Source: Planctomycetaceae bacterium
Lineage (GTDB): Bacteria > Planctomycetota > Planctomycetia > Pirellulales > UBA1268
DNA length: 33,836 nt
Assembly (NCBI GenBank): GCA_027486095.1
Contig: JAIXPT010000429.1
Coordinates: 1 to 33,836 of the forward strand
Reading direction: 5' to 3'
Position 1 is the stretch's first letter; each line of letters begins with the position of its first letter. The notes beneath the pieces were generated by a model. The model saw nothing but the letters and a program-made list of their open reading frames with translations, ran no database searches and was not told the DNA's origin. A program made the position numbers and the translations under genes. Of this stretch, positions 1 through 29,652 are shown one piece after another.

Positions 1-23
1 CTTTTTCCTTTTTGGAGGTTTGC

Positions 24-1748
24 GTGATTCGCAAAGTTCTTTCTTGCCTCCTGCCGGCTGTCGCCGTCATCGCCATGTGCACGAGCACGTGGGCGAAGGA
101 CTGCGGCTCCTGCGGTGGCTGCGAGGGTGGCTGTGAAGGCGGCGCCGTCGTCAGTGGTGGTTGTGGTGATGCCGGCGCCTCGTGCGGCGGCACCAAGACG
201 GTGTATCAGAAGCAGTACGTGACCGAGATGAAGACGGTCACCTGCACCGAGTACACCACGGAAACCCGCGAGCGGACCTACACGGTCAACAAGCAGGTTC
301 CGCGGACCGAGACGAAGACCCGCACGGTCACCGTGATGGTTCCCGAGACGAAGACGAAGACCGTGAACTACACGGTCAACAAGAACGTCACGGAAACCAA
401 GACGGCCGAGTACACCGTGCAGGTTCCCTACACCGAGTCGGTCGAGCAGACCTACACGGTGATGGTGCCGGTGAGCGAGGAGAAGACCTCGACCTACACC
501 GTCATGGTTCCGAAGCAGGAAGAGAAGACCTCGACCTACACCGTCCAGGTTCCCTACACCGAAGAGGTCGAGCAGACCTACACGGTGAGCGTGCCTGTTC
601 AGGAAGAGAAGACCGCCACCTACACGGTGATGGTGCCCTACACCGAAGAGAAGGTTTCGACCTACACGGTGAAGGTGCCCTACACCGAGCAGATGGAGCA
701 GAAGTACACCGTGAGCGTGCCCTACACCGAAGAGATGACCGGCACCCGGACCGTGCAGAAGCGCGTCCCGGTGACGACCATGAAGCAGGTGCAGGTCCGC
801 GGCGGCTCGTGGCAGACCCAGATGGTGGAAGTGGCCGGCGGCGTCGATGCCTGCGGCTGCCCCTGCCCCCCGAAGATGTGCTGCAAGCGCGTGTGGGTTC
901 CCTCGTGTGAAACGAAGGAAGTCGCCTGCACGAGCTATCAGTGCACGACGGAAGAGGTCCCCTACTCCTACACGGTCACGAAGTGCCGTCAGGAAGAGCG
1001 GAGCCGGATGGTGAGCGTGACGAAGTGCCGCGACGAGGAGCGCACCCGCACCTACACGGTGTCGAAGTGCCGCCCCGAGGAGCGCACCCGCACCTACACC
1101 GTGACGAAGTACGTGCCGGAGACGAAGACCCGCAAGGTCAGCGTCACCAAGCACAAGGCGGAGGAGCGGACCCGGACCTACACCGTGACGAAGATGGTCA
1201 ACGAGACCAAGACCCGCACGGTTTCGGTTCAGAAGTGCCGCCCCGAGGAACGGACCCGCACCTACACCGTCACGACCTGCGTGCCGGAAGAGCGGACCCG
1301 CACCTACACCGTCACGAAGATGGTGCCGGAGCAGAAGACCCGCACGGTCAATGTCACCAAGTACAAGAGCGAGACCAAGACTCGCGAGTATCAGGTGACG
1401 AAGTGCGTGCCGGAAACCATGACGAAGGAAGTTTCCTACACCGTCATGGTTCCCTCGCAGAAGGAAGAGTCGTACACCGTGACGGTGTATGACTGCGTCC
1501 CCGAGACGAAGACCGCGAGCTACACCGTTCGCGTTCCTCACACGGTGACGAAGGAAGTGCCCGTGCAGAAGTGCGTGACCGTGGCTGTCGAAGTGCCCGT
1601 CGAGGGTGGCTGTGGCGGTTGTGGTGACGCCGGTGCTGCCGGTGGCTGTGGCGACGCTGGTGCCTGCGGTGACGCCGGCGCCTGTGGCGACTGCGGCGGT
1701 GCGAAGAAGGGCTGCCGCCGCAAGGGCTGCCGCCGCTGCGGCTGCTAA
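24..1748 (+). CDS. YTV-repeat, cysteine-rich secreted/cell-wall protein (planctomycete type)
   Basis: Translation is dominated by ~14-aa YTV units (YTVMVPYTEEK.., YTVTKCRPEERTR..) with a signal-like N-terminus and Cys/Gly-rich ends. GGAGG at 14-18 sits 5 nt before GTG at 24; the ORF track starts at TTG 12. Confidence 0.88.
   Translation: MIRKVLSCLLPAVAVIAMCTSTWAKDCGSCGGCEGGCEGGAVVSGGCGDAGASCGGTKTVYQKQYVTEMKTVTCTEYTTETRERTYTVNKQVPRTETKTRTVTVMVPETKTKTVNYTVNKNVTETKTAEYTVQVPYTESVEQTYTVMVPVSEEKTSTYTVMVPKQEEKTSTYTVQVPYTEEVEQTYTVSVPVQEEKTATYTVMVPYTEEKVSTYTVKVPYTEQMEQKYTVSVPYTEEMTGTRTVQKRVPVTTMKQVQVRGGSWQTQMVEVAGGVDACGCPCPPKMCCKRVWVPSCETKEVACTSYQCTTEEVPYSYTVTKCRQEERSRMVSVTKCRDEERTRTYTVSKCRPEERTRTYTVTKYVPETKTRKVSVTKHKAEERTRTYTVTKMVNETKTRTVSVQKCRPEERTRTYTVTTCVPEERTRTYTVTKMVPEQKTRTVNVTKYKSETKTREYQVTKCVPETMTKEVSYTVMVPSQKEESYTVTVYDCVPETKTASYTVRVPHTVTKEVPVQKCVTVAVEVPVEGGCGGCGDAGAAGGCGDAGACGDAGACGDCGGAKKGCRRKGCRRCGC
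411..746 (+). repeat. Tandem repeat array 1: eight 42-bp units (14 aa, YTVxVPxxEE...), organised as a 126-bp super-repeat
   Basis: The sequence caggttccctacaccga.. starts at 420 and 546, with aaggtgccctacaccga.. at 672, exactly 126 bp apart. Each 126 bp encodes three 14-aa YTV units; the third super-unit has two. Confidence 0.85.
969..1430 (+). repeat. Tandem repeat array 2: about eleven 42-bp units (YTVTKCRPEERTR type, basic)
   Basis: Consecutive 14-aa units read directly from the translation: YTVTKCRQEERSRM / VSVTKCRDEERTRT / YTVSKCRPEERTRT / YTVTKYVPETKTRK ... Confidence 0.8.
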
Positions 1749-1825: not shown

Positions 1826-1933
1826 CTGCGAATCGCCTTTCCGAGCCGAAAAATTGACGTTCGGCGAACCCCGGGGTAGTTCTAGCCGTAGAGACTGCCC
1901 GAGCCCGAGGTTTCGCCCGCCAGAGTGTCCGCC

Positions 1934-3742
1934 ATGCGTCGCCGCCGCTTGCCCACCCGCCGCTCGACCCACACGCTCTTGCGGTGGGAATCGCTCGGCC
2001 ATGCGGTGACCGGGCTCGAGACTCTCGAAGCGCGGCAGCCCCTGGCCGCCGACCTGGCAGCGGAGATCACGGCTCCGGCCTTCTTCACGCCCGCGACCCA
2101 GGGCGCCTACACCGTCGTCGTGAGAAATCTGGGCACGACCGACGTCGCCAACGCATCCCTCACGACGGCCCTCGCGAGCCAGTTTCGCAACCCTGTCTGG
2201 ACGGCTGCCTACTCGACGGGTGGCTCGGGGCCGGTGAGCGGGGCGGGGCAGATCGCGACCGGCGACACGCTCTCGATCCCGCGGGGCGGGTCGGCCACGT
2301 TCTCGATCATCGGCACGTTTGCGGCCGATGCCACGGGCCTTGCCTCCTCGACGGCCACCGTCGTGGCGGCCGGCGACACGACGGCCGCCAACGACAGCAT
2401 CACCCGCACCCAGGTGCTCGTGCCGAAATCGCTCCTGCTCACCGACGCCGCCGGCTGGACGAGCTCGTCGATCGTGCGCGTGATCGACCCGGCCAGCGGT
2501 GCGGTGCGAACGCAATTTGATGCTTATCCGGGCGGCTACCGTGGCGGCGTGCAGGCGGTGCTCGCCGATCTCGACGCCAACGGGCTGCCCGAGATCGTCG
2601 TGGCTCCGGGCCGGGGGATCACCGGCGTCGTCAAGGTGTTCACGCTCGGCGGCGTGGAGCTCCCGGCCTACCGGATCACCCCGTTCGGGCCCCGCTGGAC
2701 GGGCGGCGTGAATCTGGCCGTGGGTGATGTCGATGGCGATCGGCTCGCCGACATCGTCGTGTCCCGGGCCACGGGCGACGGCGAAGTGCGGGTGTTTCGC
2801 ACCGCCGCGGCCGCGACGCCGGGCCAGTTCGTGACGATCCGGCCGTTCGCACAAAACTTCGTCGGAGGCTCGACCGTCGCGGTCGGCGACTTCGGCACGT
2901 TTGCCGGCGGCACGACGGTGGATGCCGGCAAGCCCGACGGCCGGCTCGAGATCGTCGTCGGGAACGGGCCGACGACCACGCCGCTCGTTCGGGTGTACGA
3001 AGTATCGGGCACGAGCCCGGCGGTGGTGAAGGCCTTCGAGCCCTTCGAGGCGACCTTCGCGGGCGGCGTCGCCGTCTCGACGGCCCGGGTAAACGCCGAT
3101 TCGATCGCGGACGTGATCGTGGCGGCCGGCCGCCGGGGCGGCTCGCAGATCGAGATCTACGACGGCCGCGTCGGCACGAACGCACGGCTGCAGACTGCGG
3201 CCGCATTCGCCGCGCTCGGCTCGAAGAATGCCGCCGTGGCTGCCGCGGCGATCGACACCGACGGCGATGGTCGTGCCGACTGGCTGTATGCGACCCAGGG
3301 CGCCGGCGGAACGGCCAGCCTGCGGCGGGCGGCGATCGGCAGCGCGGCGTTTGGCGCGATCGGCGGCCTGACTCCGGATGCGGCGGTGTCGGCCCCGGTG
3401 GAAGCCTCGCCTGCCGCGATCGTGACGACCGCATCGGGGCTGCAATATCGCGACATCGTGGTGGGCGGCGGGGCGCGGCCATCGTCCGACACGGCCCGGG
3501 TGACGGTGAATTACGAGGGGCGGCTCCTCAATGGCACGCGGTTCGATGGCAACAACGGCACGTCGTTCGCCTTGAACGGCGTCATCAAGGGCTGGACCGA
3601 GGGCCTGCGGTCGATGCGGGTGGGCGGCCGGCGGCAGCTCATCATCCCGGCTGATCTCGGCTACGGCAGCACGGGCAGCGGCGGCAGCATCCCGCCAAAC
3701 GCCACGCTCGTGTTCGACGTCGAGCTGCTCACGACGACCTGA
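1934..3742 (+). CDS. Secreted protein: Planc_extracel-like N-terminus, DUF11/CARDB-like domain, FG-GAP-like repeats, C-terminal FKBP-type peptidyl-prolyl isomerase
   Basis: N-terminal GLETLEARQPLAAD motif; repeated DxDxDGxxD-type segments (VLADLDANGLPEIVVAPG, AVGDVDGDRLADIVVSR); C-terminal VTVNYEGRLLNGTRFDGN...GWTEGLRSMRVGGRRQLIIPADLGYGSTGSGGSIPPNATLVFDVELL is a clear FKBP signature. Alternative start GTG 1925. Confidence 0.85.
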   Translation: MRRRRLPTRRSTHTLLRWESLGHAVTGLETLEARQPLAADLAAEITAPAFFTPATQGAYTVVVRNLGTTDVANASLTTALASQFRNPVWTAAYSTGGSGPVSGAGQIATGDTLSIPRGGSATFSIIGTFAADATGLASSTATVVAAGDTTAANDSITRTQVLVPKSLLLTDAAGWTSSSIVRVIDPASGAVRTQFDAYPGGYRGGVQAVLADLDANGLPEIVVAPGRGITGVVKVFTLGGVELPAYRITPFGPRWTGGVNLAVGDVDGDRLADIVVSRATGDGEVRVFRTAAAATPGQFVTIRPFAQNFVGGSTVAVGDFGTFAGGTTVDAGKPDGRLEIVVGNGPTTTPLVRVYEVSGTSPAVVKAFEPFEATFAGGVAVSTARVNADSIADVIVAAGRRGGSQIEIYDGRVGTNARLQTAAAFAALGSKNAAVAAAAIDTDGDGRADWLYATQGAGGTASLRRAAIGSAAFGAIGGLTPDAAVSAPVEASPAAIVTTASGLQYRDIVVGGGARPSSDTARVTVNYEGRLLNGTRFDGNNGTSFALNGVIKGWTEGLRSMRVGGRRQLIIPADLGYGSTGSGGSIPPNATLVFDVELLTTT

Positions 3743-22739: not shown

Positions 22740-23693
22740 TCAGTAGCGGAACGCTCCGAGCCGGAAATCGGCCCGCCCCCTGTAGCAGGGGGAATCGAGC
22801 GGGCCCGGAAAGAGCTCCGCGCTCGGCTCGAGCCCCACGTCCCGCGTGCGCACGAGCGTCAACTCGAGCACCGAGGGCAGGGGGATACCACCGACGATTG
22901 CATATGGCCGGTGGTTGTTGGCGTGGACATGAATGACGCGGTGGCCGGCGGTGAGCACCGCGACGGCCCGCCCCACCAGCGCCGCGAACTCCGGATCCGT
23001 CAGCCGTTCGAGGAAATGAATCTCGATCACGATCTGCCTGAAGTGCCCCAGGCAGTCGTCCGGCAGTCCGGCGAGCACATCCCATTCGCAGCCCTCGATG
23101 TCGCACTTGAGCAGCAGGTCGTCGCGGCCGCGGTGCCCGTTCCGGTCGAGGAGGCGCGGGAGGGTCTCGAGGTCGGCGGTGGCCCGCGGTCCCAGGCCCG
23201 TCTTCGACCAGTGGAACCGCGGATGCTCCAGCGGAAGCCGGTCGATCGTGTGGTCGTACTGGAACACTTCGATCCCCCGTTCGGCCATCGCCACATCCCA
23301 CGACACCTCGTCGCAGATGCCGATCGAGTAGGCAGCCCCGATGCCGGCGAAATCTTCGAGCATGACATACCCTCCGTCGGCCTCCTTGCCGATGCGAATC
23401 TTGCCGCGCTGCGTCGCCCGCATCGGCTCGAGCCGGCGGAGAATCGGCTCGACTCGCTCCTGCACGCCGGCGGAGTCGTCGTAGACGAAGCCGTCGGTCG
23501 CCATCGTCCGCCGCGTCGTGTATTCCGGCATGGCGACGAGCTTCCGGACCATGTCACCGAAGTCGCCACAGGATTCGAGGAAGGGCTTGATCTCGGCCGG
23601 ACCGCTTGGATGTCGGCCGAGGATGTTTGCGAAGCCCCATACGACGTCGGCGCTCGAGAGGCTCTTGGCCTTCTTCAACCTGAAACCGAGCAT
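22740..23693 (-). CDS. FkbM-family-like methyltransferase
   Basis: RIGKEADGGYVMLEDFAGIGAAYSIGICDEVSWDVAMAERGIEVFQYDHTI...DDLLLKCDIEGCEWDVLAGLPDDCLGHFRQIVIEIHFL. ATG at 23693; the ORF-track extension to 24230 is not supported. Confidence 0.78.
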   Translation of the reverse strand: MLGFRLKKAKSLSSADVVWGFANILGRHPSGPAEIKPFLESCGDFGDMVRKLVAMPEYTTRRTMATDGFVYDDSAGVQERVEPILRRLEPMRATQRGKIRIGKEADGGYVMLEDFAGIGAAYSIGICDEVSWDVAMAERGIEVFQYDHTIDRLPLEHPRFHWSKTGLGPRATADLETLPRLLDRNGHRGRDDLLLKCDIEGCEWDVLAGLPDDCLGHFRQIVIEIHFLERLTDPEFAALVGRAVAVLTAGHRVIHVHANNHRPYAIVGGIPLPSVLELTLVRTRDVGLEPSAELFPGPLDSPCYRGRADFRLGAFRY

Positions 23694-23724: not shown

Positions 23725-25253
23725 CTACGCGGCACGACGACGACGCTTCGCCTCGCGGAGCCACTCGCGGACCGTGCGGGCGAACCGAAACTGCAGCACC
23801 GCCTGCTTGAGTGGATGATGCGGCCGGCGCGGCGGTGCTGGAGCGGGTCGCGCCGTGGATTGCCGCGTCGCCACCTCCAGCATGGCGACCCACGACATCG
23901 CCCAGCCGTCGTCATGAGACGCCCGGCCCCATTCCTCCGCCTGCCCAAGTCGAGAGAAGGCGGCGCAGAGGTCGTCGAAAAGCCGGCATCTGAGGGCTTC
24001 AATCCGCGCATCCGCCAGCTTGATCCGGTGCGCCGCGGCACCGGACAGCGGCTGCGTGGACCCGGACCGTCGATCCAGTTCATCGAAGGCGGCCAGGAGG
24101 GGTGCGAGCCGGCGTTCCCACGGCTCGTCGCCCTCGGGCGATCCACAGGCGATGCGGCGGCGACGTTCGAGCTCGAGATCCTGGTAGAAGGCGAGGCTGT
24201 CTTCGCCGACGAGCCGCGGATGCATCGCATCCAGGATGGTCCGCATGCTCCCCGCTCGGCGCATCCGCTCGAAGAACGAGTGCGGCGTCATCGCATGGAT
24301 GTGATAGCCCGTGGCATCGGCGAGGTAGCGGAGCCGGAGCCCCCGGTGCGAGAGCCGGTACCCGAGCTCGACGTCCTCGAACGCCGCGAAGCGAAACGCC
24401 TCGCTGAAGACCTGCTCGATATCCGCCGTCAATCGCCGCTTCCACGAAACATTACACGTGTAGAACCTGTCGTATGGCACGATTTTGCCGTCGTGCAGGT
24501 CGTGGTAGGCGAATTGATGGCCGCCCGCACCGACGATGTGGTTCATTAACCAGCCCGGGGACACATCCGGATGCCAATCGACCCTGCCGACGAATGCATC
24601 CTCGGGATTGGCGTGGTGACGATGGGCCTCGCGGTGGCGGGCCACGAGATCCCGGGCCGGCACGATGTCGTCGCCGGTGACGAGAAACAGTTCGCCCTCG
24701 GCCGCCTCGAGCGCAACATTCCGAGCCGCCCCGGGGCCATGAGGGCCGGGATTGTCGAGCACCCGCACGCGGAGTCCCTTGCCCGCCGCGGCGGCGATGC
24801 CGCGCACGGCATCACCATCTCCATGATCGTTGACCAGCAGGAGTTCGAAGGCGCGGTCGCTTTGGCCAGCGTAGCCGGCGATGGTCTTCGCCAGTTCGTG
24901 CGGGCGGTCCTTGGTGGGCATGATCACCGAGAGCGGGAGCGTGGCCGGCCGGCGGCGGCGGGCCGTTTTCCGCTCCTTCTCGGCACCCCATTGGTGCAAC
25001 GCATGCACGAGCGACTCGGCAGCGTGCCTCCAGGTGTATCGCGAGAAGACGTGGGCCCGGGCGACTGCCGCCGCCTCGTCGGCCGCCGCGGGGCTGCGGA
25101 GATACGTCCGCAGCGACTCGACGAGCGCGTCCTCGCGCACCTGACACCAGTAGGCACCTGGACCGACGAGGTAGTGTTCGGTGTCGTAGCACGGGCCGAC
25201 GGGCACCTCGTCGAATTCAAGCGGCAGGTATCCTCCCACCGGGGCGTATTCCA
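23725..25253 (-). CDS. 3' portion of a frame-disrupted GT4-GT2 fusion: end of GT4 plus GT2 domain
   Basis: GT2: LPLSVIMPTKDRPHELAKTIAGYAGQSDRAFELLLVNDHGDGDA...LFLVTGDDIVPARDLVARH...FAAFEDVELGYRLSHRGLRLRYLADATGYHIH, preceded by GT4 C-terminal-like LEYAPVGGYLPLEFDEVPVGPCYDTEHYLVGPGAYWCQVREDALVESLRTYL. Confidence 0.75.
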
Positions 25254-26117
25254 GGGGCCGCCGAAAGCCGGCATCATCACCGGGAGCCCTAGCGCCATCG
25301 CATCGATGATTTTCATGGCATACCCCTCGCCGCGGAACGGTGCGACGAGGAGATGCATGTCGCCGTAGAGGCGGATCAGATCGCTTTTGGAAAGAAACGT
25401 CTCGTGCCACACCAACTTCGGAAACGACGGCTGGGCCGCGATCAACTCGCGGAGCACCCGCGAGCCGCAGGCGGCGCCGTAATCCTTGATGTGGATTTCG
25501 ACGGGGTCGTTTGCGGAGAAGGCCTTGGCGAGGGCCGGGATCAGGATGTCGGTGCCGTAGCGATCGAGGTCGTGGGAATTGGTGACCACGAGGATTCGGC
25601 GCACCGTGGCGGCGTCCCGGGACTTCCCGGCCGGAAAGAGCGACTCGATTTCCGGCGAGTATCCCGGGGCCACCACGGAGCAGCGCGAGGCCGGAACCCC
25701 GAGGTCCACGAGGCTGTCGCGGCAGAACGAACTCAGGGGGAGCTTCCGCGCATCGTTGGTCGCGAGGTTGCAGCTCCACTGGTCGAGCGGGTGGATGCCG
25801 CCCCGAAACCGGGAGTTGGTGACGAACAACTCGGCGTCGATCTCACCCGCCGTCTCCTGCATGAGGAACTGCGACAAGCAGTGGTTGAGTTTGACGTCGT
25901 AGCCCAGGCAGGGCGTATCGCTGATGACCGCCTCCTGCTGGGGCCGCAGTCGCGGTTCAAGCGTGGGGCACAGCGTGCAGACGGGGAACAGACTGACCTG
26001 CACGCCGAGATCGGCGAGCGCGACGGCCAATTCGCCCGCGACCCAGGTCAGGGCGCTTCCCTGAGAGAGATCGATCGCCAGGTGGATCCCATCCCGCCCA
26101 CGCTGCTCGGTTGCCAT
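25254..26117 (-). CDS. 5' portion of a frame-disrupted GT4-GT2 fusion: glycosyltransferase family 4
   Basis: IHLAIDLSQGSALTWVAGELAVALADLGVQVSLFPV...RRILVVTNSHDLDRYGTDILIPALAKAFSANDPVEIHIKDYG...HLLVAPFRGEGYAMKIIDAMALGLPVMMPAFGGP, then the frame breaks. As written, this frame runs on to 24924 with Arg/Ser-rich nonsense. ATG at 26117. Confidence 0.75.
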
Positions 26118-26143: not shown

Positions 26144-27211
26144 TCACGTCGCGGCAGCGGCCAGCCCCAACCGCGCCCGGCGGTAGCCGCCGCTGGCGAT
26201 GTTCGCCACCCACTCGGTGTGATCGAGATACCACGCGACCGTCCGCACGATCCCCTCGTCGAACGACAGGCTCGGCTGCCACCCGAGCTCGCTGCGGATC
26301 TTGGTGAAATCAATCGCATACCGCCGGTCGTGGCCGGGCCGATCCTTGACCGACGTGATCAGCGACGTCGAGGGCGCGTGCGGCAACCCCGGCCGCAAGG
26401 CATCGACCGCCCGGCAGATCGCATGGACCACGTCGATATTTTTCCGTTCGCTGTCGCCGCCCACGTTGTAGACCTCGCCGACGCGGCCGCGGGCGAGCAC
26501 CGCGCGAATCGCCCGGCAGTGATCCCCGACGAACAGCCAGTCGCGCACCTGGGCGCCGTCGCCATACACCGGCAACGGCTTGCCCTCGAGGCAATTCAAG
26601 ATCATCACCGGAATCAGCTTCTCGGGAAACTGGAAGGGGCCGTAGTTGTTGGAGCAGTTGGTCGTAAGCGTCGGCAGGCCATACGTGTGGTGATACGCGC
26701 GCACAAAGTGGTCACTCGCGGCCTTCGACGCCGAATAAGGCGAGTTTGGTGCGTAGGGAGTCGTCTCCTGAAAGGCGCCCATGGGCCCGAGCGATCCATA
26801 CACTTCGTCGGTGGAGACGTGCAGAAAGCGAAACGCCCGCTGCTCGGCGTCGGGCAGGGCCTTCCAATGGTGACGTGTCTCCTCGAGCAGCCGGAACGTG
26901 CCCACGACATTCGTCTCCACGAAGGCTCCGGGCCCGTCGATCGAACGATCAACATGGCTCTCGGCGGCGAAGTTCACGATCGCGGCGGGGCGGTGCTCGC
27001 GCAGGAGCTGTCGGATGCACTCGGCATCGGCGATATCGCCGCGCACGAACACGTGCCGCGGATCCCCGGCGACGGAGGCGAGCGATTCGAGATTGCCGGC
27101 GTAGGTGAGCTTGTCGAGATTGACGACGGCCGACCGCTCTTCGGCAAGCCACTGCCGCACGAATTCGCCGCCAATGAAGCCGGCGCCGCCGGTCACGAGG
27201 ATTGGACGCAT
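26144..27211 (-). CDS. rfbB: dTDP-glucose 4,6-dehydratase
   Basis: [122 protein letters not shown]. Confidence 0.95.
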   Translation of the reverse strand: MRPILVTGGAGFIGGEFVRQWLAEERSAVVNLDKLTYAGNLESLASVAGDPRHVFVRGDIADAECIRQLLREHRPAAIVNFAAESHVDRSIDGPGAFVETNVVGTFRLLEETRHHWKALPDAEQRAFRFLHVSTDEVYGSLGPMGAFQETTPYAPNSPYSASKAASDHFVRAYHHTYGLPTLTTNCSNNYGPFQFPEKLIPVMILNCLEGKPLPVYGDGAQVRDWLFVGDHCRAIRAVLARGRVGEVYNVGGDSERKNIDVVHAICRAVDALRPGLPHAPSTSLITSVKDRPGHDRRYAIDFTKIRSELGWQPSLSFDEGIVRTVAWYLDHTEWVANIASGGYRRARLGLAAAAT

Positions 27212-29522: not shown

Positions 29523-29652
29523 GATTTTCTCCAGGAATGACTCGGGGAAATAGGCAATCCTCGGAAACACCGCAACCCCGGATTCCCGAAAAATCTCCCG
29601 CTGCCCCGACCGCCGGATCCCGCTAGGATCCCCCTCGCCCCGGTGGCCTCCC

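What the first reader, a model, noticed from the sequence alone, without database searches (positions are those of the whole stretch)
25240..25275. Single-base frame break inside a GT4-GT2 fusion glycosyltransferase
Seen on the - strand: ccg gtg atg atg ccg gct ttc ggc ggc ccc tgg aat encodes PVMMPAFGGP-WNT.. and leaves GT4-like sequence. Rereading one C gives ctg gaa tac gcc ccg gtg gga gga = LEYAPVGGYLPLEFDEVPVG..., the expected GT4 C-terminus, which continues into a full GT2 domain. One extra C in the CCCC run (+ strand gggg 25254-25257) would restore a ~797-aa fusion from 26117 to 23725. Options: sequencing/assembly indel, recent inactivating mutation or phase variation, or -1 slippage on CCC.
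Basis: seen in the sequence. Interest (0 to 1): 0.6.

Follow-up and report, generated by a model that had tools for sequence, protein, structure and literature searches.

The report
Frame-broken GT4–GT2 glycosyltransferase gene
In this bacterial genome draft, a gene for a double sugar-transferring enzyme lacks one DNA letter that all five relatives examined have, so the protein stops making sense partway; this is most likely an ordinary recent gene-disabling mutation, or possibly a one-letter assembly error, and not a new mechanism.

Summary
The frame break is real in the given sequence. On the - strand the reading frame starting at 26117 encodes a GT4 glycosyltransferase up to 25257, then the coding signal jumps to the -1 frame, which encodes the end of the GT4 domain and a whole GT2 domain to 23725. 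All five homologues found (four in the same family, one Prosthecobacter-labelled MAG) carry the same protein in a single unbroken frame and have one nucleotide more at this spot. None is split.

Most likely a recent single-nucleotide deletion inactivating the GT4 module of a surface-glycan enzyme inside an rml (dTDP-rhamnose) cluster. A consensus or assembly error in this fragmented draft (456 contigs, 77% complete) is the main rival and cannot be excluded without reads. Against a generally indel-ridden assembly, I found no second break in 66 kb of homologue-covered coding DNA, and none confirmed in a 664-kb reference-free scan of limited sensitivity.

Programmed -1 slippage, phase variation and two natural genes are not supported. 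Unexpectedly, GT4 residues 44–119 have lost 11 of 36 residues invariant in the five relatives, against 8 of 301 elsewhere, which hints at relaxed constraint. The GT2 half shows no such excess.

The parts
24924..26117 (-). GT4-frame ORF (397 aa): 287 in-frame GT4 residues to 25257, then 110 out-of-frame residues to TGA at 24926-24924
25252..25260 (-). Frame break: window GGC GGC CCC TGG AA versus GGC GG[A/T] CCC [A/T]TG GAA in relatives (one nucleotide fewer in the window)
23725..25254 (-). GT2-frame segment (509 codons + TAG): last ~100 residues of the GT4 domain, then the GT2 domain and C-terminal tail, no internal stop
25761..25988 (-). GT4 codons 44-119: cluster of private amino-acid changes (11 of 36 sites invariant in five relatives are lost)
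24924..24927 (-). GT4-frame TGA overlapping a GTG of the GT2 frame at the start of the GT2 domain (VIMPTKDR): possible but weak site for termination-reinitiation, no Shine-Dalgarno-like sequence seen
26147..27211 (-). rmlB-like dTDP-glucose 4,6-dehydratase, intact, directly upstream (PF16363, PF01370)
22743..23693 (-). FkbM-type methyltransferase-like ORF directly downstream, intact (PF05050 22.5 bits, just below its cut-off of 22.7); fused to the GT4-GT2 protein in L042

Best explanation
The gene is a GT4-GT2 fusion glycosyltransferase in a dTDP-rhamnose/surface-glycan cluster. It has recently lost one nucleotide next to the conserved Gly-Gly-Pro of the GT4 donor-binding domain. Translation from 26117 then yields a GT4 lacking its last ~100 residues and ending in 110 unrelated residues, and the GT2 domain is no longer translated in frame with it. 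I think a genuine recent inactivating deletion in this population is more likely than an assembly error. Shown: the break, and intact homologues. Inferred: loss of GT4 activity, recency, and that the deletion exists in the living cell.
For: All five full-length homologues (86% identical in G003, down to 57% in G087) are unbroken in one frame. The GT2 half shows no excess of changes on the window branch (13 versus 12 on the G003 branch) and no stop in 509 codons, so the break is young. No other frame break was found in 66 kb of homologue-covered coding sequence of this genome; no other candidate in the 664-kb reference-free scan held up. Homopolymer statistics match relatives. GT4 residues 44-119 lost 11 of 36 invariant residues versus 8 of 301 elsewhere (Fisher p = 2e-7), with third-position divergence not raised, which fits weakened constraint better than random base errors. 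Spontaneous single-nucleotide indels in glycosyltransferase genes of surface polysaccharide loci are a documented way of losing them (PMC13410964).
Against: No reads could be examined and there is only one genome of this species; its assembly is fragmentary (456 contigs, 77% complete, 3% contamination). The lost invariant residues lie in one patch rather than across the GT4 domain (residues 120-287 have one), which is not what uniform pseudogene decay gives. The reference-free scan detects only about 27% of simulated breaks.
Confidence: 0.55

Rival explanations
1. Consensus or assembly error: one base was dropped when the draft contig was built, and the living organism carries an intact fusion gene.
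For: All relatives are intact; the coding half after the break is as conserved as in a working gene; the genome is a 456-contig, 77% complete draft.
Against: No second break in 66 kb of homologue-covered coding sequence, and no confirmed one in a 664-kb scan. No homopolymer deficit. The run is only four C. Long-read-only assemblies can carry about one error per 5 kb, mostly in homopolymers (PMC8442456), which is not seen here.
Confidence: 0.37
2. Functional split: the deletion is fixed, and the GT2 module is still made as a separate protein by reinitiation at the GTG overlapping the GT4-frame TGA (24927-24924), so only GT4 activity is lost or altered.
For: The TGA overlaps a GTG exactly at the start of the GT2 domain. 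The GT2 half keeps normal constraint while part of GT4 does not.
Against: No Shine-Dalgarno-like sequence at the GTG. The overlap needs no selection to exist, since the TGA is simply a chance out-of-frame stop. No homologue is split.
Confidence: 0.05
3. Programmed -1 ribosomal frameshift at CCC produces both a short GT4 and the full fusion.
For: A -1 slip of Pro-tRNA on CCCC would give exactly the residues of the relatives.
Against: No X XXY YYZ heptamer. The downstream RNA folds no better than shuffles (z = +1.36). Relatives encode the fusion in one frame without the four-C run.
Confidence: 0.02
4. Phase variation by slipped-strand mispairing of the C run.
For: Glycosyltransferase and other surface-glycan genes are common phase-variable loci; a 7A tract in kpsC is an example (PMC13410964).
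Against: The tract is only four C and is not conserved. G/C runs of four occur about 550 times per 100 kb in this genome.
Confidence: 0.01

Closest known systems
GT4-GT2 fusion homologues G003:C180:12343-14733, G013:C16:19603-22116, G079:C76, G087:C61 and L042 (Prosthecobacter-labelled MAG)
   Same: Same two-domain protein at 57-86% identity to the window protein; in G003 and G013 it follows rmlB and precedes the FkbM-type methyltransferase
   Different: All are in one unbroken frame; L042 is additionally fused to the FkbM methyltransferase (1146 aa)
Multi-module glycosyltransferases of O-polysaccharide assembly, e.g. Klebsiella O7 ORF6 (two GT2 modules plus methyltransferase-kinase; PMC11231755)
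   Same: Several glycosyltransferase modules in one polypeptide in a rhamnose-containing glycan cluster, with a methyltransferase joined in some members
   Different: Different module families (GT2-GT2 versus GT4-GT2); homology was not tested and this is an analogy of architecture only
Spontaneous single-nucleotide frameshifts in capsule genes (kpsC, wcaA; PMC13410964)
   Same: One-nucleotide indel disrupts a surface-glycan biosynthesis gene
   Different: Those were verified in cultured strains; here only a draft assembly is available

Membership tests
GT4-GT2 fusion glycosyltransferase | GT4 (GT-B) domain followed by GT2 domain in one homologous protein | tested here: met
   Pfam PF13692 and PF00535/PF13641 in the window pieces and in G003; full-length homologues
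GT4-GT2 fusion glycosyltransferase | Single continuous reading frame | tested here: not met
   The window copy changes frame at 25252-25257; five of five relatives do not
Frameshift-inactivated gene (pseudogene) | Intact orthologues in relatives and a frame-disrupting indel | tested here: met
Frameshift-inactivated gene (pseudogene) | Relaxed constraint | tested here: inconclusive
   GT4 residues 44-119 yes; rest of GT4 and GT2 no
Frameshift-inactivated gene (pseudogene) | Deletion present in reads or independent isolates | not testable with these tools
   No reads; one genome of the species
Assembly/consensus indel | Other indels in the same assembly | tested here: not met
   None in 66 kb homologue-covered coding sequence; reference-free candidates were antisense shadows or normal gene starts
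Programmed -1 frameshift | Tandem slippery heptamer X XXY YYZ | tested here: not met
   Site is C GGC CCC TGG
Programmed -1 frameshift | Downstream stimulatory RNA structure | tested here: not met
   z = +1.36; 188 of 200 shuffles fold at least as well
Programmed -1 frameshift | Site and frame arrangement conserved | tested here: not met
   Relatives are in one frame
Phase-variable gene | Long mononucleotide or short tandem repeat tract | tested here: not met
   Four C only

The most novel reading that the evidence does not exclude
The lineage is dismantling a bifunctional glycosyltransferase: part of the GT4 domain lost constraint first, the deletion then cut the GT4 module off, and the GT2 module survives as a separately translated enzyme through the TGA/GTG overlap, changing the surface glycan.
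Probability: 0.05. Interest if true: 0.35.

Novelty: new member of a known kind. Interest (0 to 1): 0.12.

Why it matters
Mainly for annotation. The two halves should be recorded as one disrupted GT4–GT2 gene, not as two glycosyltransferase genes. If the deletion is real, this lineage has lost one sugar-transfer step in a rhamnose-type surface-glycan cluster that its closest held relative keeps.

Tried and rejected
AlphaFold model of the G003 fusion (five-sequence alignment) to place residues 44–119: mean pLDDT 42, unusable, so no fold search was run. Exact-match search for the flanking sequence in viral contigs: nothing. Gene conversion from a diverged paralogue as the source of the 44–119 patch: third positions are not more diverged there, so not favoured. 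Diversity-generating retroelement: changed bases include C, G and T as well as A, so rejected. The patch is not the window's most diverged stretch by raw count: rmlC, rmlA and the gene at 29650 each have a 76-codon stretch with as many or more first/second-position changes. Only the loss of invariant residues is unusual. Tandem frame changes seen against antisense ORFs were shadows and were discarded.

Full report
What is there. The window is contig 263 of a 3.77-Mb, 456-contig draft genome, 77% complete. On the - strand an ATG at 26117 opens a frame that encodes a GT4 glycosyltransferase through ...GLPVMMPAFGG, ending at 25257. From there the coding signal (GC at third codon positions) moves to the -1 frame, which continues without a stop to TAG at 23727–23725. 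The first frame runs on as an arginine-rich out-of-frame tail to TGA at 24926–24924. Pfam places GT4 (PF13692) in the first piece; in the second it places the end of a GT4 domain (PF13524, profile positions 102–142, below its cut-off) followed by GT2 (PF00535). The break therefore falls inside the GT4 donor-binding domain, not between domains.

Homologues. A search of the same genus and family (72 genomes), of 397 genomes of the order and of 392 of the phylum gave full-length homologues in four other genomes, all in the same family: G003 (same genus), G013, G079 and G087. Each holds the protein in one frame without stops. The genome-contig scan added a Prosthecobacter-labelled (Verrucomicrobiota) MAG, L042, also unbroken and further fused to an FkbM methyltransferase. 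Only the window copy is split. At the site relatives read GGC GGA CCC TTG GAA (G003), GGC GGA CCC ATG GAA (G013) and GGC GGT CCC ATG GAA (L042); the window has one nucleotide fewer. The exact lost base is not determinable: at least two one-substitution-plus-one-deletion histories from the G003 sequence are equally short, and no relative has five C.

Is it recent? The GT2 half differs from G003 at 15% of residues, and changes are shared equally between the two branches when polarised with G013 and L042 (13 window, 12 G003). There is no stop in 509 codons. The break is therefore young, or absent in the living cell.

Is it an assembly artefact? I fetched 83 further contigs of the same genome, making a sample of 84 contigs and 664 kb with the window. 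A reference-free scan for mid-gene frame changes gave this break by far the highest score (137). The next five candidates (64–79) were, by eye, antisense shadow ORFs or normal gene starts. That scan finds only about 27% of simulated one-base deletions. With fetched contigs of relatives, 66 kb of coding sequence could be checked against homologues and held no other break (earlier, with shadow hits resolved). Runs of identical bases are as frequent as in two relatives. So the assembly is not generally indel-ridden, but a single local error cannot be excluded.

An unexpected second mark. GT4 residues 44–119 (window 25988–25761) carry private changes such as Y80C, W81L, P82S, H74D, Y102S and R116C. 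Of 36 positions there that are invariant in all five relatives, 11 are lost, against 8 of 301 in the rest of the protein (p = 2e-7). Polarised changes in the GT4 half are 18 on the window branch and 3 on the G003 branch; in GT2 and, summed, in seven neighbouring genes they are about even. Third-position divergence in the patch is not raised, which argues mildly against random base errors or import of a diverged segment. This suggests weakened or altered constraint on part of the GT4 domain before the deletion. It is not uniform decay, since residues 120–287 are normal, and by raw count other genes in the window have equally diverged stretches, so I hold it as suggestive only.

Mechanism. Best reading: a recent one-nucleotide deletion that removes GT4 function and uncouples GT2. 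The consequence for GT4 is inferred from the loss of about 100 C-terminal residues of its catalytic domain. GT2 might still be made by reinitiation at a GTG that overlaps the TGA at the start of the GT2 domain, but no ribosome-binding sequence is visible and the overlap can be chance. Programmed frameshifting lacks a slippery heptamer, a stimulatory structure and conservation. Phase variation lacks a tract.

Context. The gene lies next to rmlA, rmlC, rmlD and rmlB, with further GT2, RgpF-like, sulfotransferase-like and methyltransferase genes in the window, i.e. a surface-glycan cluster with dTDP-rhamnose supply. Multi-module glycosyltransferases with attached methyltransferases are known in O-polysaccharide assembly (PMC11231755). 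One-base indels in such genes are a known route of loss (PMC13410964).

Verdict. Genuine inactivation is put at 0.55, assembly error at 0.37.

Noticed in passing
window 25761-25988 (-): GT4 codons 44-119 have lost 11 of 36 residues invariant in five relatives while third positions diverge normally; the cause is unclear (relaxed or changed selection).
   Followed up: partly
L042:5080-8517: In a Prosthecobacter-labelled MAG the GT4, GT2 and FkbM methyltransferase domains form one 1146-aa ORF; in the window the methyltransferase is a separate ORF starting 31 bp after the GT2 stop. The ~66% identity across phyla suggests transfer of the cluster or a mislabelled bin.
   Followed up: no
window 24924-24927 (-): The out-of-frame TGA overlaps a GTG exactly at the first strand of the GT2 domain.
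   Followed up: partly
window 1925-3742 (+): A 605-aa ORF appears to join a repeat-rich, FG-GAP-like N-terminal region to a C-terminal FKBP-type peptidyl-prolyl isomerase domain (read by eye, no family search).
   Followed up: no
window 3-1748 (+): Long ORF of many repeated '(R/K)TYTV' units with a cysteine/glycine-rich end, resembling planctomycete YTV-repeat proteins (read by eye).
   Followed up: no
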